64,000 nucleotides of DNA from the NCBI GenBank assembly GCA_033060915.1, contig CM065396.1:4880001-4944000 (forward strand). Reading direction: 5' to 3'. This DNA comes from Euryodendron excelsum. Its lineage: Eukaryota > Streptophyta > Magnoliopsida > Ericales > Pentaphylacaceae. Shown piece after piece: positions 4,168 through 50,876 of the stretch. The translations under genes and the position numbers were made by a program. The notes beneath the pieces are model-generated. The model searched no databases and was not told where the DNA came from. It saw only the letters and a list, made by a program, of their open reading frames with translations. Positions within the stretch are counted from its first letter, which is position 1, and each line of letters begins with the position of its first letter.

Positions 4168-7100
4168 TGTAAGCACCCTATTTTTGTTTGCTTGGCAATC
4201 TTTGGCCCGACCGGACGTTCAATCCCAAACTGACTATTCGAACTCAATCTAGTCAATCAACACCTTCGTGGGCTTGCTAGGCCCGATAGAGGCAAAATAA
4301 CCAAAATGGCCTTGAGGCATTGCTCGGTCCAATTCTAGTTGGCACATCTTCCTAAAGACGGTAAGTTTATATTTCAACCTCAATTCCAGTTTCAATTCCA
4401 TTCCAAACCAGTCAAACTCAAATCGGCACATTTTTCGAGAAAGTTGATCCCTTAGACAATAAGTCCATCCAGCATGGCACATTTACTGAGAAAGCACAAA
4501 ATCCCTCAAAACAAAAAGTCCCTTCACACCCGTCAACCGGGACAGAACCCAAGTCCCTGTGATGGTAGAGCGGTTCACTTTTAGCGTCAGCTAGCCCGCC
4601 AACGTAGAATGTCTGCTATCCAGCATGTCTTTTGAAGAAGTTAATTCCTTAGACGATAAGACCATGCAACAGCTTCTCGAGATCAAATAATCTTCAGACT
4701 AAACGCACACTATTAGAGTGATGAAAACACTCACAAATATCACAACTGTCAGAGTGATGAAAACACTTGCAAACAGGTCGACACTAGGAATGCCAACAAA
4801 TGCTTATGTCACGGGACCGAACACGCCACTTGATCGTGACACGTTTATAGAAGGACGGGATGCATTTGGAAAAAAATTCATCACACACCATTAGAGTGAC
4901 GGAGACACTCAAAATCTGAGTCAATACTAGTGCCTACTAGCCTATTCCGGTGAAAAATGACCAAACTGCCCTTTGGGCCCCATCGACACATTTTTCAACA
5001 ATGTACCTAAGATCTCAGAATGATAAGTCTACCCTTCCAAGACTGTCCTAAAGATAATCCAGCACGTTCTAATGCCTTCCAGTCGTTTCTAGATCGATTC
5101 CGAGAGTATCTAGTCAAAATGATCAATTTGCCTATAGGCATCCAATTGCCTCCGGAAACCACACCGGCTCTAGATGTAAAACTGGTTACCTTTTGAGGAT
5201 GCTTCTAATAGTATTCCCAGCCTTCTAATACCTTTCTGGACTATTCTGAGTCCATTTTAGTAAACCTGGTATGAAATAACCATTTTACCTCAAGTAGGCC
5301 GGTCTCCTTTTCCAATCACACCGACTCTAGGTATCAAACTAGCAATCCTTTAGAACACTCTCAATAGTGCTTCCGACCTTCAAATCTTCTCATGGATCAC
5401 TTTGAGTCAATCCTGGTGTTCTCCCAATTTAAATGACTGTCTTGCCCTTGGTGGGCCGGTTGCCCTTTTTAACTAATCCGACTGTGGTTCTCATGTCTTT
5501 TACCTCTGGGACACTTTTTCAGGGGTTCTTATCCATTCCTAGCTGAGTTTGGTTACTCGGAACCTTTCGAATCATTCTCAAATTTTTCAGAGTCACTCTT
5601 AGTGAAGCCAAGCCAAAAATTACATGGTAGTCACTAAGACAGGCACCCAAATTTTCTGCATTGCGTTCCAAAACGCAAAAATCTATTTCTTACAGCCTCA
5701 AAATTTCCTAAAACGACGAGAACCATAGCAACAGGCACCATGCACTATTCCAATTACCTCCTGCGTAAAAAGGGTTTGCAAAATCACTCCAGAAATCTGC
5801 CTCTCTGAAAACAGAGTTCGAATTCCCTCAAAACCCTAATTCTCTCAAGCCCCCTCAAACCCTAGCCTCCATACAATCTATACACTTAAGGCCTTGCCTC
5901 CAAGCATCCATTAAAGGTTAAGTCCAGCCCTTCGAAGCTCTTGAAGATCAACTTAAAGTCCAAGCAAAGTCCAATATCAAAGCATCAAAGCAAAAAGAAG
6001 ACAAGGTAGGGTTTCTAGTTAAATTATGCAATCTCCCTCTCTCTCTTCTCTCTCCTTATCTACTTGGGTTTTTTTCTATTTTAATCCCCATCTTCTACCT
6101 CCTCTTGTTACATGCTTGAAACAAGGGACCTCCCAGGTCATGTCTAGGAAGGCCTTGTAGAGAATCACCATGTCGGAAATTTGTTTCGAGTTCCCCCTAC
6201 AATGGTGTTGGTCCAACCCCCTTGATTATGTGGTGAAGCCAAAACCTTATATGTTCATGTCCATATTGCATTGTAGTTGTTATATTCATGCATTGTATTT
6301 AATACTATGTTCAAGGTTGTTTTCAAAACTTGCATTCAAAACCTTTTTCTTTCAAAATTATTTTGAAAACCACACTCCTATGATGATTCTAACCATTCTA
6401 TGATTAGGGTTGTTTTAGGAGAGTGTTATATTCAACATGACCATCAAGGTCTAAATTTGGGTTCAAATCCTAATTTGTTTTTAAAAAACCACAATCCTAA
6501 GATGATTCTAGCCATTCCATGGTTAGGGTTGTCTTAGGAAAGTGTTACATTAAAAAAAAACCACCAAAGTCCATATTAGGGTTTCAAACCCTAGTTGTTG
6601 TCAAAATCACCACCTTAGAATGGTTTTAGTCTTCTCATGATTAGAATTCTTTTAGCAAAGTGAGATATTTAAGAGACTTGCAAAAGTCTATATTCAAACC
6701 TTTCTAAACAATTTTGCAAATCTACTTTCTAAAATGTCTTTTCAAAGATTCACTTTTCAAAAACTCTTTGTCTTGAAATTCAAGTCAAAACTCTAAAGTC
6801 CATGTTTAAGAAACTTTAGTTTTCTCACATAAAATCATAGGTTTCCAAAACCATTTTCTACATGGAATCATAGATTTTCTAATTCAAAATACATATGAAA
6901 TGATAGATTTCCAAAACTAAAGCTTTCCAGTTTTAAATCAAATCAAATCTTTTCAAAATAGAAAATTAAATTAAATCATCTATTTTTTAAAATAAAATTC
7001 AATCTTCAACTTTAGGAAATAGAAATCAAATATTTCCTAATTTCAACATTTCCTAATTTCAAAACCATCCAATAAACAAAACTTTCCTTTTTCAATTGAA

Positions 7101-8493
7101 ATCCAATGTTTCCAATTCAAGCGCATCGCATATATCTTAATTCGTAGGATGGGTTAAATCCCTAGTTACCTCAAACCTAGGTCAAACATTTTTCAAATTC
7201 AAACTTTTCTTAAATCGAATCTTTCCAAATCCTGACTTTCCAAATCTTTTCAAATTTCAGATCTTATTAAGTTCAAATCTTTCTTAATTCAAACCTTTCC
7301 TAAATCAAATCTTTCAAAAATCAAGTCTTTCTTAAAAAGGAAACTTTTCTAAAATAGAAATTTCCTAAATCGGAACTTTCCTAATTTAAAAATTTCCTAA
7401 TTTGGAACTTCCTTAATTCGAAATTTTTTAAAATCAAACCTTTCTATTTCAAATGCATGTTTCAACCCTAGGTTGCATAAATTCTAGGAGGCTAAAGCCT
7501 TAGTTTAATCCCAACCCTAAGCTAGAAGGCTTTAGCTCTTTTTTAAAACTTAAGTCTAAATCAAGATGGTTTTCAAGCTTCAATTCAAGCCAAGGTGATT
7601 TCAAAACTCAATTGAAACTTTACAAAATAAGTCCAAGTTCTACTTCAAAGTTCGATTTCAAATCAAAGCCGATTTCAAATCTTCTAATCAAAGATCAAAT
7701 CCAACCCTTTTCAAATCAAACCTTTCAAAGGCCCTAAAGTGTCTTCTCAAGTTAAACAAGACCCCAAAGTATCTATTTTTAATCGGATCCCGAGTCCGAA
7801 CTACGACTGACCTGAATCCCAACAAAGGGATACGTAGGCAACCCTCATGAGTGCAGTCATAACATTTTTCAAAATTCCAATTCCCTTTTTCAAAATCTCT
7901 TTCTAAGTTTAAATTATTTTCATGCATTTGCATATCATATATATCATCATCCCTAAAGTGATGACACAAATTTATTTCTAAAATTCTTTTCAAAGTGGAT
8001 ATAATTGGACATGGATAATCAAATTCTAAATGAGTGAACTTAGGGTAAAAAGACATGTAAGTACTGCAAGGGTGGGATAGGGTGATAGCATAGTGCAACT
8101 TCCCTATATGTAACCAACTTCCAAACCTAGAATCATTGTTTTCAAAGACCAAAAAAAAGTTATTTTAAAAAATGACTTACATATTTTAAAAGGCTGCCAA
8201 ACAACCTGTTTTCTCCAAAAAAAAAAAAAAAGAAAAAACCCTCTCTTAAGAAAGTATTCCAACAACCTTTTCGAAAGCCCTAAGTTTAATATTTGGATTG
8301 CACTTAGTTTTAAGTGACCTAACTCACCTTAACAAAGTTAGTTGGTGACTCCAAATCGTTTCCAAAAGCCTTATTCAAATCAATTTCAAATTTAAACATA
8401 ATCTCACTCGTCCTTTTAGGAGGAAGAGTTCTAATGAGAGAGTACCATGCATTTTTTCACCATTCTCGAATGTGAAAAAATTGGGGCGCGGCA
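4168..8493 (+). repeat. 3' LTR of element J (subfamily A, ~4.3 kb)
   Basis: The LTR runs from TGTAAGCACCCTATTTTTG to TTGGGGCGCGGCA. It is the reverse complement of the LTRs at 13161-17162, 27479-31827 and 40633-46193. Reading in element direction, U3 (4168 to about 5800) holds GAGTG/CACTC dyads (4700-4910) and about four ~150-bp repeat units (4950-5560). The region equivalent to the TATA box of other copies (about 5740-5790) is degraded. After it come A/T-rich repeats, the family block GGGATACGTAGGCAACC (7828-7844), and a terminal segment matching the other LTR ends (8270-8493). There are no genes. Confidence 0.75.
4950..5560 (+). repeat. U3 tandem repeats, ~150-bp period (element J)
   Basis: About four diverged units share an AAATGACCAAACTGCCC-type segment followed by CCACACCGGCTCTAGATG and similar, with spacing close to 150 bp (cores near 5113, 5267 and 5413). 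This is the reverse-complement counterpart of the arrays at 60170-60960 and 47244-47930. Confidence 0.6.
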
Positions 8494-27478: not shown

Positions 27479-30400
27479 TGTCATGCCCTAATTTTTCGCA
27501 CTCGAGAAAACAAGTGAAAAAATGTGCAGTACTATCTCGTTAGAACTCATTCTCCCAGAAGGAAGAGTGCCACTAGGTTTGAATTGGAAATTGATTTGAA
27601 TAAGGGCTTTTGAAAAAAGGTTGGAGTCACCACCTAACTTTGTTAAGGTGAGTTAGGAAACCTAAAACTAAGTACAATCCACAGATTAAACTTAGGATTT
27701 TTGAAAAGATTTTGGAAAAATTCCTCAAGAGAGGGTTTTATGGAGAAAACAGGTTGCTTGGCAACTTTTGGAAAAATTGAAGTCTTTTTTGAAAAATAAC
27801 TTCGTTTTGCTTTTTTGAAAACTGTGATTTTAGATTTGAAGGTTGGTTACGTAGAGGGAAGATATACTAGGCTATCACCTTATCCTGCCCTTGCGATACT
27901 TATATGTCTATTCACCTTAGCTCATTCATTTAGAATCCTGATTATCCAATATCCAATTATATCCACATTGAAAAGAATTTTAGAAAAATGCTTGACATGA
28001 TGCATGACATACAAACGCATGTAAAGAACTTGAAAAAAAATATTGATTTAGAAATAGAGAATTAGAATTTTGAAAAGAGTTCTGGAAAATGAAAACTTGG
28101 AAAAGATTGTGACCGCACCCATGAGGGTTGCCTACGTACCCCTTTGTTGGAAATTAGGTCAGCCGTAGTTCAAACTCGGGGTCCGATTGAAAATAGACAT
28201 TTTGGGGTTTTGTTTGATTTGAAAAGTCACTTTGCGACCTTTGAAAGGTTTGACTTGAAAAGGGTTAGATTTAAACTTTGAATAGAAAATTAAAAACTAA
28301 ACTTTGATTTGAAATCGAACTTTGAATAGAACTTAGACTTATTTTAGAAAGATTGAATTGAACTTGGAATTCATCTTGACTTGAATTGGAGTGTGAAAAC
28401 CATCTTGATTTAAAAGAAAGTTGAAGTTTCCTAACTTTAGGTTTAGGGTTGAACTAGGGCTTTGGCCTCCTAGGGTTTATCCAAACTAGGTTTGAAACAT
28501 GCACTTGCAATAGAAATGTTTGATTTTGGAAAGTTTTAATTTTAGGAAGGTTCCAAATTAGGAAAGTTTTGAATTAGGAAAGTTTTGAAATGGGAAAGTT
28601 CCAAATTAGGAAATTTTGTTCCGAATTAAGAAAGTTTCAAATTAGAAAAGTTTTATTTTAGGAAAGTATCAAATTAGGAAAATTTTATTTTAGAAAATTT
28701 TTCATTTTAGGAAAGAATTGATTTTAAAAAGATTTGAATTTGGAAAGGTTTGAATTAAGAAAGATTTAAACTTAGAAAAATTTGAAATTTGGAAAGATTT
28801 GATTTTAGAAATGTTTGAATTAAGAAAGGTTTTGAAAGTTAGAAATTAGAAAAAGTTTGAAATTAGGAAAGATTTAATTTTAATTTCCTAAAGTTGAAGA
28901 TTTGATTATATTTTCAAAAATAGATGATTTGATTTTGTTTCCCAAATTTAAGGATTTGTCATGGAATTGGAAAGATTGAGTTTTGAAAATCTTGAATTTG
29001 GAAAACTACGATTTGATGGAAAAAGGGTTTTGGAAGCCTATGATTTGAGGTGACTAGAAAGTCATGATTTTAAGAAAAGAATTAGAGTTTCCTAACCATA
29101 GATTCTAAGGTATTGACTTGGACTCTCAAGAGAAAGGGTTTTTGGAAAGTGTATATTGGAAAAGAGTTTTTAGGAAGTAGATTTGCAAAAACTATTTTAG
29201 AAATATTTGAATGTGGTAAGTCTCTTGAATATCTCACTTTTCCAAAATGATTCTAACCATGTGAATGTTAGAACCATTCTAAGATTGTGATTTTACAACT
29301 ATGGTTGAAATATGGACCATAATGATCACTTTGAATGTAACACTTTCCTAAAATAACCATAACTATGGAATGGCTAGAATCATCTTAAGATTGTGATTTT
29401 GATAAAAACAATTTAGGGTTTGAACCCAAATTTGGACCTTGATGGTCACATTGAATATAACACCTTCTTAAAACAGCCCTAACCATGGAATTGCTAGAAT
29501 CATCCTACGAGTGTGATTTTGAAAACAAATTTGAAAGAAGGAGGTTTTGAATGCAAGTTTTGAAAAAAAACTTTAATGCAATTTTGAAAATAACTTTGAA
29601 TGCAATGTTAAATGCAATGCATGAACATGATAACCACAATGCAATAGGGTCATGAACATATAAGGTTGGGCTTCACCACATAATCAAAGGGGCTGAATCT
29701 ACACCGTCATAGGTTGAACTTGAAGAAAGTCCCAAGCAAGGTGACTTTCAATAATTCTTCCTAGGCATGAATCGGAAAGTCTCTTATTTCAAGCATGCAA
29801 GAAAAGGAGGTAGAAGATGGGGATTAAAATAGAAGAAAACCCAAGTAGGCTAGGAGACAGAAGAGAGAGGGGAAATTGCATAAACTAAATTGAAAACCTT
29901 CCTTGTCTTCTCTTTGCTTTGGTTTCTTTGTTTACTTTATTTTCTTCACTATGAGAGTTTTGAAGATGCAGCACTTGACTTTCAATAGATGTTTTGTGGT
30001 TTTTATTTGAGTGTATAGGATGTATAGAGGCTAAGTTTTGAGTGTATGGAAGTTAGGGTTTGAAGGAGCTCGAGAGAATTAGGCTTTTGAGGGAACTCGA
30101 GCTCTATTTTTAGTAAGGTAGAGTTTCTAGAGTAAATTTGCGAACCTATAATATGCAGGGGAGGGTCTATATTTATAGGCAAACAGAACAAGAACTGGTG
30201 CCTGTTGCTGTGGCGCCAATGTGTTTTTAAACTTGGCACCACTATTAGTAGCACTAGCCTCTTTGGGAAACTTTTAAGGTGCAAGAACAGATCTTTGACC
30301 TTGGGACTACAAGGCAGAAGATTTGGACTCCTGTTCTAGTGACTACCATGCAATTTTTAGCTTGGCTCCACTAGAAGTGACTTTGAAAAGTTCGAGAATG

Positions 30401-31827
30401 ATCCGAAAGGTTCTGAGTAATCAGACTCGGCTAGGAAAGGATGGGAACCCTTGAAAGAGTGTTTCGAAGGTAACTGACTTGAGAAATAATACCAGAATAG
30501 TTAAAAAGGTTGACTGGCCCACTAGGGGCTAAACTATCATTTGAATCGGAGAAACATCGGAATGGACCCAGAGTGACCCGTGAGAAGGCTTGAAGGTTGA
30601 AAACACTATTGAGAGTGTTCTAAGGGATTTCCGGTCAGATACCTAAAGCTTGTGTGGTTAGAAAAGGTGACCGGCCCACTAGGGGTAAAATGGTCATTTG
30701 TACTAGGCTTATCAGAATAGACTCAAAATGGTACGGAAAGGTATTAAAAGGTTGAGAATAATATTAGAAGTATCCTCAAAAGGTAACCAATTTGATACCC
30801 AGAGTCGGTGTGGTTTACAAAGGCGATCGGATGCCTAGGGGCAAAATGGTCATTTTGACTGGATGCTCTTGAAATCAATCCGGAAGCTACTAGAAGGCAC
30901 TTGGACGTGCTAGATTATCTTTTGGACATTCTTAAAAGGGTGGACCTACTGCTCTGAGTACTTAGGTACTCTCTCAAGAAACGTGTCGGTAGGGCTCAAG
31001 GGGCAGTTTGGTCATTTTTCACAAGAATGGGCTAGCATGCATTGGTGTTAAGTCAGGTTTTGAGTGTTTTTGCTATTCTAATGGTGTGTAATGAGTTGGT
31101 TTCCAAAGATATCCTATCCTTCAGTAAACGTGTCATGGCCAAGAGGTGTGTTCGATCCCGTCACATAAGGGGTTTGTTGGCAATTCCCAATGTCAACCTA
31201 TTTGTAACTGTTTTCGTCATTCTGATGGTTGCGATGTTTGTGAGTGTTTCCTTCACTCTGAAGGTGAGTGTTCATTCCAGATATTGCCTAATCTCAGGAA
31301 GCTACTGAATGGTTTTATTGTCTCGGGGCCTTAGGTACTTTCCCAATTGACATGCCGAATAGCGGGCATTCTACGTTGGCGGGCTAGCAGCCATCAAAAG
31401 TGAACCGCTCTACCATCTCGGGGACTAGGGTTCCGTCCTGGTTAATAGGTTTGAAGGGACTTATTTTTTCGAAGAGTTTTCTCAGTAAATGTGTCGCGCT
31501 GGATGGACTTACCATCTAAGGGATCAACTTTCTCAAAAGACGTGTCGGATTGAGTTTAATTGGTCTAGATTGGAATTGGAACTAGAATTGAGGATGAAAC
31601 AAGGACTTACTATCTTTAGGAAGATGTGCCAATTGGAATTGGATTGAGTAAGGCCCTAGGGGCATTTTGGTCATTTTGCCTCTATTGGACCCTGCAAGCC
31701 CACAAAGCGGTCGATTGAATAGATTGAGTCTAGAGAGCCGATCTTGGCTTAAATGTGTTTGTGTCGGTTTGAATGTAAGCCCGGTCGGGCTGGAGATTGT
31801 TGAGCGGGCAAAAATAGGGTGCTTATA
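27479..31827 (-). repeat. 3' LTR of element I (4.35 kb)
   Basis: On the plus strand the LTR runs from TGTCATGCCCTAATTTTTCG to AAAATAGGGTGCTTATA (the terminal CA has become TA). It matches 40633-46193 except for the duplication in the latter. It holds a TATA box at 30177-30170, the GGCACCACT dyads at 30200-30260, U3 repeats (30480-30900) and GAGTG/CACTC dyads (31060-31280). The two LTRs differ visibly, roughly one base in five to six in segments I compared by eye, so this is an old insertion. Confidence 0.85.
30170..30177 (-). promoter_or_regulatory. TATA box, 3' LTR of element I
   Basis: Minus-strand GCCTATAAATATAGACCC is a canonical TATA context 1.65 kb from the LTR start. The same sequence occurs at 43118-43125 and 59907-59914, which supports conserved promoter function. 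Confidence 0.75.
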
Positions 31828-31847
31828 GCTGCCTCTCTTTTTCTGTC
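31828..31847 (-). other. Polypurine tract of element I
   Basis: The minus strand reads GACAGAAAAAGAGAGGCAGC and ends exactly at the 3' LTR start. It primes plus-strand DNA synthesis. Confidence 0.75.
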
Positions 31848-32293
31848 TTTACTTGTCGAAGGTAGAAAATGATAAACTAAGGGTCCTATGTTGACCGCGA
31901 GACGATCAGAGGGATTGAATTTGGAAATTTTTGAAAGCTGGAGCTTGAAATTAGCAAATTGGCCTAAGGGAGCATTTGAAATCGGATTTTGACAAGAAAA
32001 AGGGCAAAGTTGCCTAGAATTTGACTGTGGTGCCACTACAGGCTTAAAATAGCCTTAGTGCCACTATTGGTGGAGCTAGGCCTGAGAATAAAAATGTAGC
32101 AGGGCCCTCATTCGGGGCTTGCAGTTTTGAGAGGGAATCTGAGCGTTTGAGAGCTTTTCTCGAGTTTTTTTGCAAGGAGGGACTCATGAGAATTGAAGGA
32201 GTGAGTTTAGGCGACATCGATGAGTTGCTAAAAGTAGTCACCGTTGTCGAAATTATTGCCAAAGAAGAAGATTTTGCTGGAGAACTCTAAGAG
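31848..32293 (+). other. Likely promoter/first exon of the antisense PMD gene
   Basis: This stretch lies between the PPT and the first intron donor (AAGAG|GTGAGT at 32294). It holds GGTGCCACTACAGG and GTGCCACTATTGG dyad-type motifs (32027-32075) like those near the LTR TATA boxes, then a purine-rich stretch. No coding start of note is seen, so if transcribed it would be 5' UTR. A corresponding region occurs in J (3707-4148, minus). No clear TATA box was found, and the assignment is inference from the gene layout. Confidence 0.4.
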
Positions 32294-33435
32294 GTGAGTT
32301 TTTTTGTTTTGTGTTGATTTGATGTGTAGAACTCCATTTAAGTTGTGTCAATAGTCGAAACTGATGTTTTGGTTTGCTTTGAACACTCTGGCGATATTGT
32401 TTCTATATTTTAATGCTCGTTTGATTGAGTTTAATTAGTTTTGCATATTTATGTAAAGAGGGTTTCTGTAAAAATTAGACATTTGCTCCTATAGCTTTGG
32501 GTACTAGGGTTTTTGGCTAGATTTTTACACCATATGCCTTAGAAAAATGTGTTGAACAACCATATGAAGTTTTGTGATTTTTTGAAAACTTTTTAATTTT
32601 TTTTTAAAATAGAAAAGTGCTTGAAAAATAAGAAAATTTGATAAATTGATAAAATTGTTTGAGTTGAGGGTTTAGAAAAATATGATAATTTTTTAAAAAA
32701 TATTTGAAGTAGTTTTGAGAGATTTTGCGATAATTTTGAAAACTATTGGATTTTTCGAAAATAGAACATGTGTTTGAAAATTTTAAAATCTTAAGAATGT
32801 GCTGAGATTGTTTTATGTGTATTAGTGCTATGTGATTGTGATGCAGTGGGGTGGACGTTTTGTCCTTTGTTGTAGTGTTTTGGGTGTTGTAAGGATTATT
32901 TATAAGCAAAATTTTGCTGAAAATTTTTAAAATTAGGGAAAAGTTAGAAAAATTTTTAGATGAAATCTTTTTGAAGGAAAAAGATATAAAACCTTTGAGG
33001 GTGGAGCCTTTTTGGCAGATAAGATCTTGGAAAACTCGAGAGGTCTCTAGAATAAAAATTTTTAAAGGAAAAAGCTTAGAAAAACCTTTGAAAATGGACT
33101 TCGGATAAAACTTTTGAAGGAAAAGTTTTAAAACCTTTAAGAGTTGATTTTTGAACGAAACTTTTGAAGAAGAAGTTTAGAAACTTTGAGAATTGATTTT
33201 GAAAATAAACTTTTGAAGGAAAAGGTTTAGGAAACCTTTGAATTGATTTTAAAAATAAACTTTTGAAGGAAAAAGTTGAAGAAACATTTGAATTGATTAG
33301 AATAAACTCTGCTGGGAGTAAGGGGACAGGACTTGTGTCATTAATTCTTTTCTTTATTTTCTTTTTCTTGTACCTTTTGTCTTTTGAACTGCATATATTG
33401 TATATTGATGTCTTTTACCTTGATTTGACTTTCAG
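32294..33435 (+). other. Intron 1 of the antisense PMD gene (element I)
   Basis: The donor is AAGAG|GTGAGTTTTT. The acceptor is CTTGATTTGACTTTCAG, with a plausible branch point (TTGAT or TTGAC) and pyrimidine tract, ending at 33435. The ATG follows two bases later. At 1142 bp it matches the intron of element J (3706-2513) in position, size and flanks. Inside are the purine-rich GAAGGAAAAAG units (32980-33290). It is antisense to element transcription, so it would not be spliced from the genomic RNA. Confidence 0.65.
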
Positions 33436-35113
33436 GATGGTCAACGCTGGCGATGATAGTTCTGAGTAAAGACGTTTGTCCGGGAAAGGGGCTCGCATGG
33501 ATTCTGTCAGCAGTTCTAGCCAATTTAGAGGCAGTCGTAGACCAGTTGGCAGGACTTCTTCTAGCCTGAGTGGGAGGGGGAGTATACCTTCGGTTGACCC
33601 TTTTCCTCTAGTCGAGCTGGCTTTTGAGGGAGAGATGGATGTCGAGGATGAGGCATCAGGCCTAGGGGATCATGTGACTGGTTATGGGAGGGCCTCTACC
33701 AGGTGGAGGCAGACAGATGTGGATTTGGGGGACTTAGAGGTACCAAACATTCCTCCATTAGGTGACTTAGCCCATCATTCCAGTGTATATTCTTGATAGC
33801 ACTTGCCCCCTCCTCGAGTACACACATCATTTAGAGGGGCCATCCACCAAGCTTTTAGTACCATGCAGCAGGCCGCTCCATCCTACTGTGCCTTTCTAGT
33901 AGAGATTGGGTTCAGACATTCATGGGATTATAAGCAAACCGCTTGAATTGTCATTTATTATTGGCATTGATTGGGAGATGGTTTAGAGAGACAAGGACCT
34001 TCCACTTTATGGGTTTTGAGCTGGGTCCTACTCCTTTAGACTAGGCCATCATCACTGGGCTTTCTTTTGTTGGTCATTAGCTTACCCTGCAGCCAGTTAG
34101 TAGGGTTGAGGCTTGTGCTCTGTTGGACTTGCCGCCTCTTGACCGTTCTACTTTTCCTGTGTCCTAGCTTAGTCGAGATGAGAGTACCTTCTCTGTTGAG
34201 CCACCACTTGAGTGGTGAGACGTTATGAGGCGACGAATGGTTATGTATATTATTTTTAACTGCTTTTACAACAACAACAAATCAATCATCCATTTCATAT
34301 TGGTGAGTGTGGTAGCTGACTTGGGATCCTTGTCAGAGCTGGACTAGAGGTCTTTCTCTTTTGGTTACTTCCTTAGTTCCATGCGAGTCCAGACTTCTTC
34401 CCACTAGGGCAGCATGATCGGGTTTTGGCCCTTTCTGGTTTGGTAGAGTTATGAGCACCTGCTGGTTCACTGTCTAGAAGTAATAGAGGCTGACCTTTAT
34501 CCCCACGCTTTGAGATGGGCTCGTGATTAGGTGGCCCACTGATTTCAGATTACTGACTTTGTGATAATACAGCTGAACCTGGAGTTGATAGAGGTGAGAG
34601 ATGTGATTTGGCAACCCTTTATTGGATTGGTTCATTATGAGGTAGTCAGGTATCTGGTCCTGATGACTTTGTCAAGGATTTCCTTTCTTAGTGATGAGTC
34701 TTAGGAGACCAGCATTGGCGCTAGTTTCATGAAGAGTTTTGGTCGGCTAAGGATCCACTTAAGTATATGTTTGGAGCTTTGGTGAAGGGAGTACTTATTC
34801 CATACACAGAGCGTCATCCGGGTGCTGGTTTTTGCTTCCTCCAAAGACTGACTGTGCCACACATTTTGGGGCTCATTCCATATATGCCTTCACCAAGTTC
34901 GAGGTGGTGGTCAGAGGTTATGTCGTGGGCCAAGAGGTAGTAGACTTGTGATGTCGGGCTAAGGGATATGTGCCTCAGGCTGAGTTTGCTGCCATGAGGG
35001 ATTAGAGAGACTAGTACCAGATCAAGAGAGACCAGTTCTAGATGGAGAGGGACCAGTACTAGGCTGAGGTAGCCACTTTAACTACATAGTTTGCTTAGAT
35101 GGGAGGTGGCGGA

Positions 35114-35120
35114 GTATGTT

Positions 35121-35174
<54 letters not shown>

Positions 35175-35232
35175 TTCTGGCATTGTTTAGTTATCTATTT
35201 GCTTTACTGATTTAAGTTCTTCTTTCTTCTAG
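35114..35232 (+). other. Intron 2 of the antisense PMD gene
   Basis: The donor is GTATGTTATCC, the acceptor TTTCTTCTAG, length 119 bp. It contains a (TC)n run of 47 nt. Downstream, DTGASNSQPSPLKSSF... reads openly to a TGA. Confidence 0.6.
35124..35170. repeat. (CT)n microsatellite
   Basis: A perfect 47-nt CT run lies inside intron 2 of the antisense PMD gene, ten bases after the donor. Confidence 0.95.
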
Positions 35233-35316
35233 GATACTGGCGCTTCCAATAGTCAACCGTCTCCTCTTAAGTCGAGTTTTGGAGATTTTGATCTAGACAT
35301 TGACTTTGCCTCTTGA

Positions 35317-37375: not shown

Positions 37376-39110
37376 TCACGGTCTTTTTGATAGGTGGTGT
37401 TCAAGCACAGCATACTTAGCGTGCAAAACCTCATCACACCAAGAATCAATGATCATGTCTTTGGTGGGGATCTCCTCCATAGGTATGGACTCCTCAATTG
37501 GCCAAACAGAAGGATCATGTATTTCATTTAGATTGTGGAGATAGATCGGGCATGGCGGGAATTCCTCCTCCCAGTCGCTTTTTTCATCAGTCTCCCAATC
37601 TCCATCATAATCTTCGATCATGATCTCCTCCAACCCATCATCCTCTTCAATTTTCTCTAGCATCAGGTTAATAGTATAGCCCGGTAGAGGATTTATGATT
37701 ACATTGGAGGTAGGAGTAGCATTCACCAGTTGTATGTCAATGGTCTTATTGTCTATTAGATCTTGAACTTTGTGATTGAGAGAGAAGCAACTTTCCGTGT
37801 CATGCCCTGGGCTGCCCGAATGGTATTCGCAAGTAAAGGAGCCATTAAAGGTCAAAGGTAAAGGGTTTGGCAATGGACGGGCTGGTATGGGATTCAATAT
37901 GTTGTTCTTCAAGAGGTTATGGTAGGCTTCTGTCTAGGTGTAGGCTAAGGTATGAAAGCTGCAGATGCGTTAGACCGGCCAATTGAAGTTGGGTCATGCC
38001 CCAGCAAGCCAAAGTTAGGTGCTAGAGCGGGCATGGTTAGAGTGGGTATGGGCAATATAGGATGTGACTGGAGTGGTGGACGATATTGCTGCAGTTGAAT
38101 GAGCAAAATGGTAGACACCTCATTCATCTTCTTGATTGCCCCTCTTGCAGTGGTCACCTTTTTGGATATGTTGGCAGAACTTTCTCCAGTTTTTACATAG
38201 GAATATGTAATTCTTCTCATCTTGAGACTATTCTCTATCATCTCCCCTTACATGATAAGCTTGGAGAAGCTTTTCTCCATACTTGTGCAGAGGTTTTCGT
38301 AATATATGCCTTAGAAAGTATGCATGAATAGTTGCACATACTCCTTCTCCTCCAAAAAGGGATTGACTTGTGTTGCTGCTTCTCTCCATCTAAAGGCATA
38401 TCTCTTGAAGCTTTTTTTTTCTCCCTTACTCAGTGTCATCAAGGACCATCGGCCAGAAGTGAGATTTATGTTGTGGCGATATTCTACTCTGAATGCATTA
38501 ACCAATTCAATCCAAGTCGTAATCTACCTTAGATCGAGTCGAGCAAACTATTGCAGGGCGGACCTAGTGAGACTATGTTGAAAAATTTGCATGAGGAGCT
38601 TTGGATCATTCACATGACCACTTAATGCCCCATCATAAAGGCCAAGGTGGGCTATAGGGTTGCGGTGCCATCGTACTTCTGAAAATCAGGCATTTTGAAC
38701 TTGGCTGGTCTTGGATGGTCCGAGAAGAAGCACAACTCATCATAGGAAGTAAGCCCAAAAGTATCATGGCTATGGAGGCTTTGCAGTGAGTCCTCCAACC
38801 CTTGGATTTTCAAACTAAGAGGGTCTAAGGGAGCACTTTTCACAGTAGGCGATAGCAATATAGTTTCTTCTTCTTCGCTGTTGGCCCCTTTGGAGTCCTT
38901 TTTGTTTTTCCCCATTGTGTCAGATTGGAGCATGGTTCTTGGGTTGGCAATTTCAAAGTCTTTTGGGAAGGCCGTGGATGATGACGGGGCTGAAGAAGCA
39001 TCTTTTATTGCCATGGCTTGGACGAGCTTGAACATTTCATCGATCTTGGTTCTCATCTCGTTGACTTTTTCTCTTGAGATTGATGAGGTCTCATTAGGGT
39101 TGGCCGCCAT
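37376..39110 (-). pseudogene. gag: Degraded Tat/Ogre-type gag of element I
   Basis: This is the structural Gag polyprotein of the element, in three reading frames. The first frame (39110-38652, 152 codons) begins MAANPNETSS, has an alpha-helical EKVNEMRTKIDEMFKLVQAM segment, then GLEDSLQSLHS and the hallmark PAKFKMPDFQKYDGT. The second (38505-38311, overlapping the start of a retrotrans_gag core) has LVNAFRVEYRHNINL and KSFKRYAFRWREAATQV. After a third segment (38241-37945, Pro/Gln-rich linker), the last frame (37912-37376) has CEYHSGSPGHDTESC, a C-x2-H-x5-H-x4-C cluster. This is followed by SLNHKVQDLID and NPLPGY, all typical of Tat Gag. The acidic tail (EEDDGLEEIMIEDYDGDW) ends at a stop near 37376. 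At least two frame changes and several stops separate the parts. It lies about 1.5 kb downstream of the PBS. Confidence 0.8.
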
Positions 39111-40612
39111 TAATAAAGTTCTTTGTCGGGTAATGATGGTGTTTCTTTATGGTGTAATCTCTACAAAAGAAAAAGAAAAACAAGAACACAAGTCACGAGT
39201 TAGTGTTTGATATTTAAAAAGCTTCATACGATGCATGTCTTTAGGGGTGTCCCTTCTTGTGAGGGAGATTAAACATGATGTATTTGACTCACTTTTAGAG
39301 ATAGGGGGTATGTCCCTGTATACAGATATCTTACTGTCAATTGAGAACATACATTAATTTATTCATTCATTTGCAAAAGGTAAAAGAGTATACTGAACTT
39401 TGAGTTTGAATATAGAGAAATCGAAGTACATTTTAATCGGGGGAAAGGGAACATTTTCCTCAAGACATCCACCTATCTATTTTTACATTTAAAATTCTAA
39501 ACTACTCTTGTGTCTTTAGATTTGCCTTCTTTGAGTTTGATGTTGAGGAGGTCATTAAGAGACCTTATCGTCGCATTGCCCCTTGTTCTTTTGGCAAATT
39601 TATCTTTGTGAGTATAGAGGGATTGAGGTTCCTCTTTGTGGAATGACTTGAAATCCATGCCATGAGTCCTTAGGGTTGCATAGGAACCCTTAGAATTTTG
39701 GTAAGTTTTATGCGAGGGAGAGTGAGCTTGGTGCCACTCTCTATAAGTTGATCATATGCATGAAGATGCAATGACTTGAGTTACTTTGGAACTCTTGTCT
39801 TGAAATGGAGTATTGAATGCATGTATGTGTACGCCAAGAGTATAAGGAAACAGAATGCAATTGTAAAGTAAATATGCAAGTATGAGTATTCATACAAGCA
39901 TTATAATAGCAGGAATAGACAAGGATAAAAGAAAGTAAAGCAGTCATCCTTTTCTCCATGGTTTTGAAATTGATATGCATGTCTTAAATTTGACAAAGGT
40001 TTGGCTATGCATGGTTTCTACATGAGTATGAGGCTGAGGGTTTACTAATGCTTCCTAAGAAGACTTAGTTCTTGGATCTTCAAACCTAGGCCCATTCCCC
40101 AAGGTGGTGCCATTATCGGTTGGTGATCTGAGCTACGGAACTATTAAGAGGCCGTAGGCTAAGAAACTAACACAGCATCCGCCCACAACCAATATATCAT
40201 TTCTCCTTCTACCTAAAAGGAACGTAACTAGGTAAAAATGTAAATGCGAGGGCACATTCAGTGTGTGTGTGTGTAATTTTGAAAACGGAGGAAAGGACCC
40301 AACAACTCCCATCCATCATATCCATTTCTTCCTATTCATTCATGACATACATGGCAGTTAATATGACATAAAATAAAATGGGAACAAGGGTCCACCTACA
40401 AAAGAAAATGCATAAAGTCAGTACCATGATGACAAACTTAATGCAAGATAAAATGATTGAATATGAATTGAATGCAAGTGATGGCATGTATTCAAAACAA
40501 CTTTAAAAAGTGTGATTTTGAAAATTTGAAGTGGATAGAATTGGACAAATTAATCAAAGATTCTACATGATTGAAGGGTGAAAAGACATGATAATGGCCT
40601 AATCCTTTAAGC
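39111..40612 (-). other. 5' leader of element I
   Basis: This is the noncoding leader between PBS and gag, homologous to 23411-22100 in element H. The most conserved block (40150-40240, AAGAGGCCGTAGGCTAAGAA followed by ACCAATAT and AACTAGGTAA) recurs at 22818-22900. That conservation suggests a functional leader element (packaging, splicing or translation), but none can be assigned. No gene is seen. Confidence 0.55.
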
Positions 40613-40630
40613 GTCCTAGTGGAGTCGCCA
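40613..40630 (-). other. Primer binding site of element I
   Basis: The minus strand reads TGGCGACTCCACTAGGAC, two bases past the LTR end. This TGGCGACTC-type PBS is characteristic of Ogre/Tat elements and is usually ascribed to tRNA-Arg. It fixes the orientation of element I as minus. Confidence 0.7.
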
Positions 40631-43117
40631 CCTATCGCACCCTGATTTTTCTCACTCGAGAAAACAAGTAGGAAAATGCACGGTACTCTCTCATTAGAAC
40701 TCATTCTCCTAGAAAGACGAGTGTGACTAGGTTTGAATTGAAAATTGATTTGAATAAGGGCATTTGAAAAGAGGTTTGGAGTCGCCACCTAACTTTGTTA
40801 AGGTGAGTTAGGTCACCTAAAACTAAGTGCAATTCAAAATTAAACTTGGAATTTTTTAAAAGGTTTTGGAAAACATCCTCAAAGGAGGGTTTTGTGGAGA
40901 AAATAAGTTGCTTGGCAACCTTTGGAAAGATTTAAGCCATTTTTGAAAAATAACTCCATTTTGGTCTTTTGAAAATAGTGATTCTAGGTTCTGAGATTGG
41001 TTACGTATAGGAAAATGCACTAGGCTATCACCTTATCCCGCCCTTGCGGTACGTACATGTCTATTCACCCTAAATCACTCATTTAGAATCTTGATTACCA
41101 ACATCCAATTATATCCATTTTGAAAAGAATTTTAGAAAAAAAGTTTGACATGATGCATGACATGCAAGCGCATATAAAGAACTTGAAAAAAAAGATTGAT
41201 TTAGAAATAGAGAATTAGAATTTTGAAAAGGGTTATGAAAATTTGAAACTTGAAAAAGGTTGTGACCGCACCCATAAAGGTTGCCATTGTACCCCTTTGT
41301 TAGGAATCAGGTCAACCATAGTTCAGACTCAGGGTCCAATAGAAAATAGACACTTAGGGGTCTTGCTTGATTTGAAAACACAGTGTGAAGCCTTTGAAAG
41401 GTTTGACTTCAAAAGAGTTTGATTTGACCTTTGAATAGAAAATTTAAAATTGAACTTTGATTTGAAATTAACTTTGATTTGAAATCAAATTTTGAAGTAG
41501 AACTTGGACTTATTTTAGAAAGATTGAATTGGGCTTTGAATTCATATTGATTTGAATTTGAGTTTGAAAATCATCTTAATTTAAAAAGGAGTTGAAGTTT
41601 CCTAACTTTAATGTTAGGGTTGAACTAGGCTTTGTCCACCTAAGGTTTATCCAACCTAGGTTTGAAACATACATAAGAAAAGTTTTCATCTTAGAAAAAA
41701 ATTAATTTTGGAAATATTTGAATTTGGAAATGTTCGAATTAGAAAATATTTGAAATTTGGAAAGATTTGATTTTGAAAATGTTTGAATTAGGAAAGTTTT
41801 TGAAAGTTTGAAATTAGGAAAGAGTTAATTTCTATTTCCTAAAGTTGAAGATTTGATTGTATTTCCAAAAATAACTGATTTGATTTTGTTTTCAAAATTG
41901 GAGGATTTGACATGAAATTGGAAAGGTTGAGTTTAGGAAATCTTGAATTTGGAAATCTATGATTTGGTGAAAAAAGGGTTTTGGAAACCTATGATTTGGG
42001 GCAACTTAAAAGTCATGATTTTAAGAAAAGAATTAGGGTTTTTTAATCATAGATTTTAGGGTTTTGACTTGGACTCTCAAGACAAGGATTTTTTTGGAAA
42101 GTTTATCTTTGAAAAGAGTTTTTAGGAAGTAGATTTGCAAAAACTATTTTAGAAAAATTAGAAGTAGACTTTGGCAAGTCTCTTGAATATCTCACTTTCC
42201 TAAAATGATTCTAACCATGTGAAGATTAGAACCATTCTAGAGTAGTGATTTTGACAACAACTAGGGTTTCAAATATGGACCATAATGATCACTTTGAATG
42301 TAACATTTTTCTAAAACAACCCTAACCATAGAATGGCTAGAATCATCTTAAAATTGTGATTTTGATAAAAACAATTTAGAGTTTAAACCAAATTTGGACA
42401 TTGATAGTCACATTGAATATAACACCTTCCTAAAACAACCTTAACCATGGAATGTCTAGAATCATCCTACGAGTATGATTTTGAAAACAAGTTTGAAAGG
42501 AGGTTTTGAATGCAAGTTTTGAAAGAGAACTTTGATGCAATTTTGAAAACAACTTTGAATGCAAAGCATGAATATGACAACCACAATGTAATAGGATCGT
42601 GAACATACAATGTTAGGCTTCACCACATAATCAAGGGGGCCGAATGCACACCGTCTTAGATTGAACTTAAAGAAAGCCCCCAACAGGGTGACTTTCAATA
42701 ATTTTTTCTAGGCATGAACCAGGAAGTCCCTTGTTTGAAGCATGCAAGAAGAGCAGGTAGAAGATGGGGATTAAAATAGAAGAAAATTCAAGTGGATTAG
42801 GAGAGAGAAGAGAGAGGGAGAATTGCATAAACTAAATCGACAACCTACCTTATCTTCTCTTTGCTTTGGTTTCTTTGTTTACTTTATTTGCTTCACCTTA
42901 AGAGCTTTCAAAATGCAGCACTTGACCTTCAATGGACGTTTAGATGCTTTTATTTAAGTGTATATGGTGTATAAAGACTAAGGTTTGAGTGTATGGGCGC
43001 TAGGGTTTAAAGGAGCTTGAGAGAATTAGGGTTTTGAGATAACTCGAGCTCTATTTTCAGTGAGCAAGAGTTTCTGGAGTAAATTTGAGGACTCAAAATA
43101 TGCAAGGGGAGGGTCTG

Positions 43118-43125
43118 TATTTATA
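43118..43125 (-). promoter_or_regulatory. TATA box, 5' LTR of element I
   Basis: Minus-strand GCCTATAAATACAGACCC is the active-promoter position for element I transcription toward gag. It is flanked by the GGCGCCACTACTAGTGGTGCC dyad at 43200-43220. Confidence 0.75.
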
Positions 43126-43199
43126 GGCAAATCAAACAAGAACTGACGCCTGTTGTAGTAGCGCCAGTGCAAATTTGGCACCAGGCCATTTTTTGGCTT

Positions 43200-43220
43200 G
43201 GCGCCACTACTAGTGGTGCC
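43200..43220. promoter_or_regulatory. GGCGCCACTA dyad near LTR TATA
   Basis: GGCGCCACTACTAGTGGTGCC is an almost perfect inverted repeat about 75-100 bp upstream (element sense) of the TATA box. Related dyads occur at the same place in the other LTRs (15520-15600, 30200-30260) and also near 3915-3970 and 32027-32075. Confidence 0.5.
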
Positions 43221-43357
43221 CGCCTATTTGGGAAACTTTTAAGGCAGCAAGAAACAGATCTTTGACTCTTGTGACACAAGGCAAAAGATTTAGGCACATG
43301 TCCTAGTGACTACCGTGCAATTTTTGGATCGGCTCCACTAGGAATGACTCCGAAAAG

Positions 43358-44793
43358 TTCAAGAATGATCCGAAAAGTTTTGAGTGACCAGACTAAGCCG
43401 ATAATGGATGGGAACCCTTGAAAGAGTGTCCCGAAGGTAGCAAGCTTGAGAAACACTGCCAGAATAGTTGAAAAGGTCGACCGGCCTACTAGGGGTAAAA
43501 CAGTCAATTTACACTGGGGAAACCCCGAAATCTGCCCGGAGTGGCCCGTGAGAAGGCTTGAAGGATGGAAACATCATGAAGAATGTTTTGAGAGATTACC
43601 GGTTTGAAACCCAGAGCCAGTGTGATTGGAGCAGGTGACCGACCTACCAAAGGCAAAATAGTCATTTTGCACCAGCATATAAGAATAGACTTGAAATGGT
43701 CCAGAAAGGTGTTAGAAGGTTAGGAATTCTATTGGAAGAATTCTCAAAAGGTAACCGATTTGATACCCAAAGCCTGTGTGGTTCTCGGAGGCAACCGGAT
43801 ACTTAGGAGCAAAACGATCATTTTGATTGGATGCTCTTGGAATCGATTCGGAATTGATTGAAAAGCACTCGAACGTGCTAGATTATCTTTGGGATAATCT
43901 TAGAAGGGAGGACTGACCGCTCGAAGGACTTATGTACTTTCTCGAGAAGCGTACTGGAAGGGCCCAAGGTGCAGTTTGGTTATTTTCCTCTGGAGTAGGC
44001 TAGTAGGCACTAGTGTTGACTTAGGTTTTTAGTGTTTTTGCCACTCTGAGGGTGTGTGACATGTTAGTTTCCAAAGGTCTCCTATCCTTCGGTAACCATG
44101 TCATGGCCAAGAGGCCTGTTCGATCTTGTAATATAAGGGGTTTGTTGGTAATTCCCAATATTGACTTATTTGCGATTGTTTCCGCCACTCTAACAGTTGC
44201 GATGTTTGTGAGTGTTTTCGTCACTTTGACGGTGTGCATTCTTTTCAAAGACTGCTTAACCTCGGGAAGCTACTGGAAGGACTTATCATTTGAGGAATCA
44301 ATTTTCTCAAAAGATATGTCGAATAACAGACATTCTACATTGGCGAGCTAGTAGGCGCCAGAAGTGAACCCTTTTACCATCTAGGGGACTTGGATTCCAT
44401 CCTAGTTGATAGGTTTAAAGGGACTTACCGTTTCAAGGAATTTTCTCAAAAAAACATGCTATGCTGAATGGACTTACCATTTGAGGAATCAACTTTCATG
44501 AAAGACATGTCGGATTGAGTTTGATTAGTTTGGATTGAAATTAAAACTGGAATTAAGGTTGAAATATGAACTTACCGTCTTCAGAAAGACACGCCAACTA
44601 AAATTGGACCGAGCAATGCCCCAAGGACATTTTAGTCATTTTGCCTCTATTGGGCTCTACAGAGCCCATGAAGCAATTGATTGATTAGATTGAGTCTGGA
44701 ATGCTAATCTAGGCTTGAATGTGTTAGTGTTGGTTTGAATGTGAGTTTGGTCAGACTGAAGATTGTCGAGCGGGTAAAAATGGGGTGGTTACA
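43358..44793. repeat. U3 tandem duplication, copy 1
   Basis: This 1436-bp copy starts TTCAAGAATGATCCGAAAAG and ends at an LTR-type terminus GGGGTGGTTACA. The second copy follows without a gap. Confidence 0.8.
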
Positions 44794-46193
44794 TTCAAGA
44801 ATGATCCAAAAGGTTTTGAGCAATCAGACTCGGCCAGAAAGAGTTTCCTAGAGGTAACTGGTTTGAGAAACTATGCCAGAATAGTTAAAAAGGTTGACTG
44901 GCCCACTAGGGGTAAAACGAATATTTTGAACTAGGGAAGGCTAGAATGGACCCAGAGTGACCCGCGAGAAGGCTTAAAGGTTGTAAACACTATTGAGAGT
45001 GTTCCAAGGGATTTCCAATTTGATACCCAGAGCCGGTGTGGTTGAAAAAGGCAACTGGCCTACCGGGGGCAAAATAGTCATTTCACATTAGGCTTATCAG
45101 AATAGACTCAAAATAGTCTGCAGGAAATACTATTAGAAGCATTCTCAGAAGGTAACCAATTTAACACCTAGAGCCGGTGTGGTTCCCAGAGGTAATCGGA
45201 TGCCTAAAGGTAAAATGGTCATTTTGACCAGATACTCTTGAAATCGATCCGGAAGCGACTGGAAGGCACATGGATGTGGTAAATTATCTTTGGAACAATC
45301 TTGAAAGGGTGGACTTACCGCTCTGAGGACTTAGATACTTTCTCGAGAAACGTGCTGATAGGGCACAAGGGGCAATTTGGTCATTTTTCATAGGAGTAGG
45401 CTAGCAGGCGCTGGTGTTGACCTGGGTTTTAAGTATTTTTGTCACTCTGACGGAGTGTGAGGAGTTAGTTTCCAAAGGTATTCCATTTTTTGGTAAACAT
45501 GTCATGGCCAAGTGGCGTGTTCAGTCCCATGACATAGGGGGTTTGTTGGCAATTCTCAATACCGACTTATTTACGAGTGTTTCCTTTACCCTGACGATTG
45601 CGATGTTTGAGTGTTTCCATCACTCTAATAGTGTGCGTTCATTCCAAAGACTGCCTAATCTCAGGAAGTTGCTGAATGGTCTTATCGTCTTGAGGCCTTA
45701 GGTACTTCCCCGATCGACAAGCCGAATAGTGGACATTTTATGTTGGTGGGCTAGTAGGCACCAAAAGTGAACCACTCTACCATCTTGGGGACTTAGGTTT
45801 TGTCCCGGTCGACAAGTTTGAAGGGACTTATTGTTTCGAGGAGTTTTCTCGATAAACGTGTCGTGTTGGATGGACTTACTGTCTGAAGGATTAACTTTCT
45901 CAAAATACAGGCCAGATTGAGTTTGATTGGTCAGGATTGGAATTAAAACTGGATTTAAGGATGAAATAAGGACTTACAATCTTTAGGAAGATGTGTCAAC
46001 TGGAATTGGACCGAGCAATGCTCCAAGAGCATTTTTATCATTTTGCCTCTATTGGGTTGGCGGGCCTGCAAAGCAGTCGATTGACTAGATTGAGTTTGAA
46101 AAGCCGGTCTGGCCTTGAATGTGTCTTTGTCAATTTGAATATGTGTCCAGTCGGGTCAGAGATTGCCGTGTGCGCAAAAATGGGGTGTTTACA
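44794..46193. repeat. U3 tandem duplication, copy 2
   Basis: This 1400-bp copy starts TTCAAGAATGATCCAAAAGG and ends GGGGTGTTTACA at the TSD of element I. The copies differ at many sites, so the duplication is not recent. Confidence 0.8.
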
Positions 46194-49398: not shown

Positions 49399-49588
49399 TG
49401 TCGCGACGGGATTTGAACTTGAAATTGTTTTGATTAAGGGCTTTTTTGAAAAAGGTTTGGAGTCACCACTTAACTTTAATAAAGGTGTGTTAGGTCAGCT
49501 AAAACTACGTAAAGCCTAAAGACTAAACTTAGGGTTTTTTAAAAGGTTTTGGAAAACTTCCTCAAGAGAGGGTTTTTAGGAAAACAGG
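49399..49588 (-). mobile_element. Solo LTR K, part 1 (subfamily A)
   Basis: On the plus strand the LTR starts TGTCGCGACGGGATTTGAAC, missing about 70 bp found in other copies just after the first seven bases. It is cut at GGAAAACAGG by the Athila-type element. The flank CCACT (49394-49398) pairs with CCACC (61197-61201) as a 5-bp TSD with one C-to-T change. Confidence 0.8.
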
Positions 49589-50870: not shown

Positions 50871-50876
50871 AGTTTT

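What the first reader, a model, noticed from the sequence alone, without database searches (positions are those of the whole stretch)
31848..35316. Spliced accessory gene carried antisense inside a giant retrotransposon, with introns kept through retrotransposition
Element I (minus-sense) carries a PMD gene on the plus strand with recognisable splice sites: intron 1 is GTGAGT...TTTCAG (32294-33435), directly before the ATG, and intron 2 is GTATGT...TTCTAG (35114-35232). Element J carries the 5' part of the same gene with an intron of matching position, flanks and size (3706-2513). An intron shared by two separately inserted copies must have passed through the RNA stage. That is possible because, in the genomic RNA, the splice sites are read backwards. 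So antisense placement may be what lets the element carry an intron-containing gene. Antisense extra ORFs with PMD-like similarity have been reported in Tat elements. A conserved intron structure and leader exon is the part I would regard as potentially new.
Basis: partly seen in the sequence, partly recalled or inferred. Interest (0 to 1): 0.85.

Follow-up and report, generated by a model that had tools for sequence, protein, structure and literature searches.

The report
Intron-bearing antisense gene in plant retrotransposon
A large family of plant jumping genes carries, on the strand opposite to its own, a protein gene with what look like two introns; these survived copying through RNA, probably because they cannot be recognised when the element's own RNA is read in the other direction.

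Summary
Element I (27479-46193) is a minus-sense Tat/Ogre-like LTR element with gag but no detectable RT or integrase. On the opposite strand it carries a plant-mobile-domain (PMD) gene: leader exon, 1.1-kb intron ending just before the ATG, main exon (about 564 codons), small intron (119 bp here, median 83 bp in 38 loci) and a 28-codon last exon. In 34 aligned copies, all chosen by similarity to the gene, the introns recur wherever the flanks can be judged. Older, shared substitutions in the main exon favour third codon positions (transversions 4/3/31); shared transversions in leader and intron 1, and singletons in the main exon, show no such pattern. The protein was therefore under purifying selection while the family multiplied. 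Exact-motif scans of the genome found 761 unspliced exon-1/donor junctions and no spliced one. Ten copies have unrelated outer flanks, so they inserted separately. Transcription and splicing could not be tested. J's donor is GC, and splice sites are no more conserved than other sites. The principle has a retroviral precedent (spliced antisense HBZ, APH-2). I found no report of it for a plant LTR retrotransposon in the open papers searched: a new variant of a known kind.

The parts
27479..31827 (-). 3' LTR of element I, outer end at 27479 (TG), preceded by target-site copy AGTAT
   Evidence: self-alignment, end letters
31832..31844 (-). polypurine-tract-like run AGAAAAAGAGAGG just inside the 3' LTR
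   Evidence: sequence read directly; role inferred
31848..32293 (+). leader exon of the antisense gene (5' end not known; no coding signal by codon-position test)
   Evidence: GC step near its end in 15 of 24 testable copies
32294..33435 (+). intron 1 (1142 bp, GTGAGT...TTTCAG), ends one base before the ATG; holds a ~50-bp tandem repeat at 33081-33298
   Evidence: splicing itself inferred
33436..35113 (+). exon 2, ATG at 33437; plant-mobile-domain coding region, decayed in I; 564 codons by columns occupied in most copies
   Evidence: PMD hits on natural open pieces of other copies, tblastn back to I, codon-position test
35114..35232 (+). intron 2 (GTATGT...CTGAT...TTCTAG; lengthened in I by a CT run); 76-140 bp, median 83, in 38 loci including I
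   Evidence: splicing itself inferred
35233..35316 (+). exon 3, 28 codons including the TGA at 35314-35316, in phase with exon 2
37379..39146 (-). gag remnants in the element's sense (Retrotrans_gag piece at 38314-38523)
40612..40630 (-). primer-binding-site-like TGGCGACTCCACTAGGACG, 2 nt inside the 5' LTR
   Evidence: sequence read directly; tRNA-Arg type is recalled, not tested
40633..46193 (-). 5' LTR of element I, with a 1.4-kb end duplication (43358-44793 / 44794-46193); followed by target-site copy AGTAG (4 of 5 match AGTAT)
4168..8493 (+). 3' LTR of element J
2513..3706 (-). intron 1 of J (donor GC, acceptor CAAG|ATG)
2038..2512 (-). 5' part of exon 2 in J, cut off at about 2037

Best explanation
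Elements I and J belong to a large, old, probably non-autonomous Tat/Ogre-like LTR retrotransposon family (gag, no detectable RT or integrase in I). Its members carry a three-exon PMD gene in antisense between gag and the 3' LTR. An antisense transcript starts at or near the inner edge of the 3' LTR (inferred), is spliced twice (inferred) and gives a PMD protein of about 590 residues. That protein was under purifying selection while the family was multiplying (shown). The full-length genomic RNA reads the introns as CT...AC, so the spliceosome does not remove them (inferred from established splicing rules), and the introns were copied along into separate insertions (shown in the copies whose flanks could be judged). 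The protein's job is not known. PMD proteins of the host (MAIN, MAIL1) act in silencing, so a nuclear role in the element's regulation is the most likely guess.
For: Element polarity: gag and the primer-binding-site-like and polypurine-like motifs all read on the minus strand and the PMD gene on the plus strand. PMD: 4 of 7 natural open pieces hit PF10536 at E up to 1 (5.8e-8, 8.4e-5, 0.011, 0.18). Selection, from substitutions shared by 4 or more copies in exon 2: codon positions 1/2/3 = 199/143/277, transversions 4/3/31; singletons 329/316/294. Shared transversions are 28 synonymous to 10 non-synonymous, against 111 to 523 for singleton transversions (Fisher p 5e-13). Intron 1 transversions 35/36/44 and leader 13/14/12 show no phase; intron 1 from 32310 to 33040, without its tandem repeat, gives 13/18/19. 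Exon 3: 0 shared transversions in 84 columns against 115 in 1217 in intron 1, p 5e-4. Frame: exon 2 spans 1692 and exon 3 spans 84 majority columns, both multiples of 3. The plus phase-0 frame of exon 2 has the fewest stops of six, 402 of 16160 codons. Introns kept: a 400-nt exon1/exon2 probe gave 40 matching stretches (40 scored of 1565 candidates) and none crosses the junction. A 400-nt exon2/exon3 probe gave 78 stretches at 40 loci (40 scored of 1588 candidates); none crosses, and 38 of the 40 have both sides 76-140 bp apart. Exact motifs genome-wide: exon1+donor 761, spliced exon1+exon2 0, spliced exon2+exon3 0. Separate insertions: 10 copies with unlike outer flanks, target-site copies AGTAT/AGTAG at I.
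Against: No RNA evidence of any kind. Splice dinucleotides are not more conserved than their surroundings, and donor 1 is not GT in 8 of 28 copies. Exon 3 shows no third-position bias of its own in shared changes (11/7/6); only the lack of transversions speaks for it. Of the 12 copies taken through the junction search, 8 stop inside exon 2 at differing points, so intron 2 can be judged in only 4 of them; one of those 4 lacks the leader. The exon 2 and intron 1 trees agree only in part (Mantel r 0.38, 3 of 2000 permutations as high; different supported clades), so copies are mosaics or the trees are weak. Only the best-scoring candidates of each homology search were scored. The exact-motif scans would catch only a fraction of spliced copies: 8 of 27 aligned copies match the exon-1 part, 21 of 34 (by a slightly looser form) the exon-2 start, 9 of 26 the exon-2 end and 8 of 25 the exon-3 start. 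Donor and acceptor motif counts do not fit one copy number (761 against 60).
Confidence: 0.8

Rival explanations
1. Exon 2 is a real antisense ORF, but 'intron 1' is its promoter or untranslated leader and is not spliced; 'leader exon' and donor 1 are coincidence. Only intron 2, or neither, is an intron.
For: No transcript data. Donor 1 is not GT in 8 of 28 copies. The leader has no coding signal. Maize Grande gene23 is said to have its own promoter upstream of the ORF (PMC7264820, text read).
Against: A G+C step (about 0.42 to 0.29) falls within 40 nt of donor 1 in 15 of 24 testable copies; T content is 0.27 in the leader and 0.40 in intron 1 of I. The donor reads GTGAG in most of the copies that can be judged and the acceptor lies directly before the ATG. 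Intron 2 has a constrained in-phase exon 3 behind it and a CTRAY-type branch motif in 20 of 24 copies.
Confidence: 0.13
2. I and J, and the other copies, share the introns by segmental duplication of DNA, not by separate retrotransposition.
For: I and J lie about 25 kb apart in inverted orientation.
Against: Homology stops at the outer LTR end; 10 copies on 7 contigs have unlike 500-bp outer flanks. I-J divergence exceeds that of I's own LTR pair. I has a 4-of-5 target-site copy.
Confidence: 0.02
3. The splice signals are chance matches in decayed DNA without any gene.
For: Splice-site columns are no more conserved than background; I itself has many stops and frameshifts.
Against: Third-position bias of shared transversions, p 1.3e-9; synonymous excess against singletons, p 5e-13; PMD similarity; exons 2 and 3 both whole numbers of codons.
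Confidence: 0.03

Closest known systems
HTLV-1 HBZ, HTLV-2/3/4 APH proteins and BLV AS transcripts (PMC10186651, passages seen)
   Same: Antisense gene near the 3' LTR of a retroelement, with an antisense transcript that is spliced, so an intron persists in the provirus.
   Different: Animal retroviruses with demonstrated transcripts; here a plant LTR element, an unrelated PMD protein, a long intron directly before the ATG plus a second coding intron, and no transcript data.
aORF-3R of plant LTR retrotransposons: Grande gene23, RIRE2, Retand ORF4/TRP28, PvRetro13 (PMC7264820, text parts 1-2 of 3 read; PMC11963269, passages)
   Same: Antisense gene between the polyprotein region and the 3' LTR; Grande GENE23 is nuclear.
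   Different: Described as ORFs. The word intron does not occur in PMC11963269, and PMC7264820 only says that spliced transcripts should be looked for. Domain here is PMD, not TRP28.
PMD extra ORFs of Ogre elements (PMC6317226, passages) and the Gypsy-only PMD-A clades (PMC5418596, passages)
   Same: PMD in a Tat/Ogre-type element; PMC6317226 gives 57% of Ogre elements.
   Different: Those extra ORFs were predicted as frames of at least 250 codons, a method that does not look for introns. Their orientation in Ogre was not seen in the passages. Clade membership of this PMD was not tested.
[quoted passage not shown]
   Same: Introns in plant LTR retrotransposons.
   Different: [quoted passage not shown] here introns of an antisense gene that the genomic RNA would not splice.

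Membership tests
Tat/Ogre LTR retrotransposon lineage | LTR pair with TG...CA ends and 5-bp target-site copy | tested here: met
   LTRs 27479-31827 and 40633-46193; outer TG and CA; AGTAT/AGTAG, 4 of 5
Tat/Ogre LTR retrotransposon lineage | primer binding site for tRNA-Arg next to the 5' LTR | tested here: inconclusive
   TGGCGACTCCACTAGGACG 2 nt inside the 5' LTR; the tRNA match is recalled, not compared with a tRNA gene
Tat/Ogre LTR retrotransposon lineage | RT, RNase H, aRH and integrase domains placing it in Tat | tested here: not met
   No RT, RNase H or integrase match among 34 minus-strand pieces of 38 aa or more between 35300 and 40650; some other copies are colinear over this stretch. 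Called Tat/Ogre-like by structure only, not filed as a member by RT phylogeny
Antisense additional ORF (aORF-3R) of plant LTR retrotransposons | gene in antisense between the gag(-pol) region and the 3' LTR | tested here: met
   gag on minus, PMD gene on plus between gag and the 3' LTR
Antisense additional ORF (aORF-3R) of plant LTR retrotransposons | present in most copies of the family | not tested
   the copies studied were selected by similarity to the gene, so its share among all copies with this LTR is not known
Plant mobile domain (PF10536) | profile match above the curated cut-off | tested here: inconclusive
   4 of 7 natural open pieces match at E up to 1; best 32.7 bits, E 5.8e-8, below the cut-off of 34.9 for the whole protein; pieces cover only parts of the domain
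Spliced antisense retroelement gene (HBZ type, by analogy) | spliced antisense transcript from the 3' LTR region | not testable with these tools
   no RNA data available
Spliced antisense retroelement gene (HBZ type, by analogy) | intron retained in inserted copies | tested here: met
   no intron-less copy in junction-probe and exact-motif searches, within their limits

The most novel reading that the evidence does not exclude
Antisense placement is a general device that lets LTR retrotransposons keep fully eukaryotic, intron-bearing accessory genes, with a leader intron that boosts expression. In this family a gag-only element carrying little else than this gene spread to hundreds or thousands of copies, the PMD protein countering the host's own PMD (MAIN/MAIL1) silencing. 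Other antisense genes (gene23, TRP28) would then hide introns too.
Probability: 0.15. Interest if true: 0.85.

Novelty: new variant of a known kind. Interest (0 to 1): 0.62.

Why it matters
Reverse transcription of spliced RNA strips introns, and a 2025 review says plant LTR retrotransposons generally lack introns, naming Ogre and EVADE as exceptions (PMC12786077, passage). A selected, three-exon antisense gene that keeps its introns shows that orientation alone may get round this. ORF-based surveys (PMC6317226) would not see such gene structures, and there is a direct test: look for conserved splice sites in the antisense genes of Grande, RIRE2 and Retand. It also adds a selected PMD gene to an element that seems to have no polymerase, which raises the question what the protein does for a non-autonomous element.

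Tried and rejected
Splice-site conservation as proof: rejected, because the dinucleotides are no more conserved than other columns. Indel-length bias as evidence for coding: no clear difference (deletion lengths divisible by 3: 10 of 67 in exon 2, 8 of 76 in intron 1), as expected for decay after insertion. Phylogenetic agreement of intron and exon: only partial. A further PMD copy in the window beside I and J, for example next to the related LTR at 13171-17169: none found. Relatives in the protein collection: 1 hit for a PMD piece and 2 for a gag piece, uninformative. Whether any copy still has an intact PMD frame: asked ten times, never answered. A looser acceptor count and an unspliced exon-2/donor-2 count: not completed. 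Whether autonomous relatives with RT exist was not tested. Papers: Gomez-Orte 2013 and Steinbauerova 2011 were seen only as references in other papers, not read; either could report introns.
Full report
What is there. The window lies in a 1.06-Gb genome held without a name; its content is that of a plant (my reading of the elements, from no call). Element I runs from 27479 to 46193. Its 3' LTR (27479-31827) and 5' LTR (40633-46193) start and end with TG and CA or their decayed forms, and are flanked by AGTAT and AGTAG. The two LTRs differ at K2P 0.20, so the insertion is old. In the element's sense (minus strand) there is a primer-binding-site-like motif next to the 5' LTR, gag remnants at 37379-39146 and a purine tract next to the 3' LTR. 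Among 34 minus-strand pieces of at least 38 aa from 35300-40650, no RT or integrase domain was found. A homology search with 34700-40900 found copies elsewhere that are colinear over nearly the whole stretch at nearly the same length, for example 6256 bp on C1 and 6283 bp on C10 against about 6200 in I (37 candidates scored of 21473). So at least part of the family lacks pol and must be moved by another element's enzymes.

The gene. On the plus strand, between the 3' LTR and gag, lie a leader, a 1142-bp intron, exon 2 with its ATG at 33437, a 119-bp intron and an 84-nt exon 3 ending in TGA at 35316. Natural open pieces from other copies match the plant mobile domain PF10536 (4 of 7 pieces at E up to 1: 5.8e-8, 8.4e-5, 0.011, 0.18; all below the curated cut-off of 34.9 bits). 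Such pieces, and an N-terminal one, align back to exon 2 of I at 51-70% identity. J carries the same leader, intron 1 and the first ~475 nt of exon 2 on the minus strand and is then cut off.

How general it is. I fetched 20 copies from the best hits of the whole-gene search (40 scored of 10207 candidates) and 12 more from an exon-junction search, and aligned these 32 with I and J. All were therefore chosen by similarity to the gene; how many copies of the element lack it is not known. Splice-site counts among copies homologous at each site are: donor 1 GT 20 of 28, AG before the ATG 33 of 34, donor 2 GT 21 of 22, acceptor 2 AG 20 of 24; the copies left out at each site, 6, 0, 12 and 10, fell below the similarity threshold there (missing, rearranged or too diverged). 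Of the 12 junction-sampled copies, 11 carry leader, intron 1 and exon 2 in order (L030 lacks the leader), but 8 stop inside exon 2 at differing points and only 4 reach exon 3. The splice-site rates are not above the background of the region. The copies have mostly been decaying since insertion, as the star-like trees suggest (exon 2: terminal branches sum to 3.84, internal to 0.30). I therefore did not use dinucleotide conservation as evidence.

Evidence that the gene structure is real. Substitutions shared by at least four copies should mostly date from before insertion, singletons from after it (recurrent C-to-T decay can blur this for transitions, hence the emphasis on transversions). In exon 2 the shared ones fall 199/143/277 on codon positions 1/2/3, and shared transversions 4/3/31, while singletons fall 329/316/294. 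Shared transversions are 28 synonymous to 10 non-synonymous, singleton transversions 111 to 523 (Fisher p 5e-13). The third-position excess holds for thresholds from 2 to 6 copies and points the same way in a subset of 14 copies made of I, J and the junction-sampled set (5/4/14). Leader and intron 1 show no phase (13/14/12 and 35/36/44). Exon 2 and exon 3 span 1692 and 84 majority columns, both divisible by three. Exon 3 has no shared transversion in 84 columns, against 115 in 1217 for intron 1 (p 5e-4), but no third-position bias of its own (11/7/6). At donor 1 the G+C content drops from about 0.42 to 0.29, and the best change point lies within 40 nt of the donor in 15 of the 24 copies with enough sequence (the T run behind the donor contributes, and two copies, L013 and L033, show a change in the other direction further on). 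Intron 2 is 76-140 bp long in 38 loci, median 83. Its last 61 bp in I are 56% T, and a CTRAY-type branch motif lies upstream of the acceptor in 20 of 24 copies.

Introns passed through the RNA stage. Ten copies, I and J among them, have a recognisable outer LTR end, and their 500-bp outer flanks show no similarity apart from one 19-bp match. I and J are more diverged in transversions from each other than the two LTRs of I are (0.071-0.073 against 0.047). They are separate insertions. A 400-nt probe of joined exons 1 and 2 gave 40 matching stretches, none crossing the junction. A probe of joined exons 2 and 3 gave 78 stretches at 40 loci, none crossing; 38 loci have the second part 76-140 bp further on, and 2 show only one side. 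That matches break at the junction is a property of such a probe; the point is that no match runs on. Exact motifs over the whole genome gave 761 matches for exon 1 plus donor and none for its reversed control, none for exon 1 plus exon 2, and none for exon 2 plus exon 3. The spliced motifs would detect only part of spliced copies (the halves match 8 of 27 and 21 of 34, and 9 of 26 and 8 of 25, aligned copies), so intron-less copies in small numbers are not excluded.

Mechanism. In the genomic RNA the introns read CT...AC and are not spliced; this follows from established splicing rules and was not tested. The presence of the introns in the separately inserted copies that can be judged fits it. 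Transcription from a promoter near the 3' LTR, splicing and the protein's function are inferred. PMD proteins MAIN and MAIL1 act in silencing in Arabidopsis, and PMD-A clades are found only in Gypsy elements (PMC5418596, passages). That makes a role in regulating or evading silencing the best guess, with low confidence.

Unexplained. The exact donor motif (761) and the I-like acceptor motif (60) imply very different copy numbers when scaled by their match rates in the alignment (4 of 28 and 6 of 34). Either most family members have a diverged acceptor region, or the leader is shared with elements that carry another gene or none. Two further counts meant to settle this did not complete.

Known and new. 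Spliced antisense genes exist in HTLV-1 to 4 and BLV (PMC10186651, passages). Antisense genes without described introns are known in Grande, RIRE2, Retand and PvRetro13 (PMC7264820, PMC11963269). The introns of plant LTR elements named in the passages seen, Ogre and EVADE, serve the element's own transcript (PMC12786077; PMC6317226). Searches of the open library listed no report, judged by titles and starts of abstracts, of introns in an antisense gene of a plant LTR retrotransposon. Subscription papers, Gomez-Orte 2013 and Steinbauerova 2011 above all, were not available. I therefore call it a new variant of a known kind.

Noticed in passing
51736-53736 (+), LTRs 49588-50871 and 56161-57443: A younger LTR element (LTRs 95.7% identical) with well-preserved gag and aspartic protease frames sits in the older nest.
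   Followed up: no
L009, about 9583-9999: In this copy an LTR starts right where the gene's downstream region ends (equivalent of 36209), so gag and primer site are missing there: a still smaller derivative or a deletion.
   Followed up: no
L029, L031, L033, L035-L038, L040, and J: Homology to the gene stops inside exon 2 at differing points (equivalents of about 33698 to 34813; J about 33912), so many copies carry only the 5' part of the gene.
   Followed up: partly
43358-44793 and 44794-46193: The outer 1.4 kb of I's 5' LTR is present twice in tandem; target-site letters fit the outer copy.
   Followed up: partly
33081-33298: Intron 1 contains a ~50-bp tandem repeat; the aligned intron length ranges mostly from 1.04 to 1.58 kb between copies.
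   Followed up: partly
genome-wide: Exact leader-donor motif occurs 761 times but the I-like acceptor motif only 60 times, more different than decay alone suggests.
   Followed up: partly
1081-1114: A run of 34 C in the DNA beyond J's truncation.
   Followed up: no
47246-47872: Tandem array of 144/284-bp units just outside element I.
   Followed up: no
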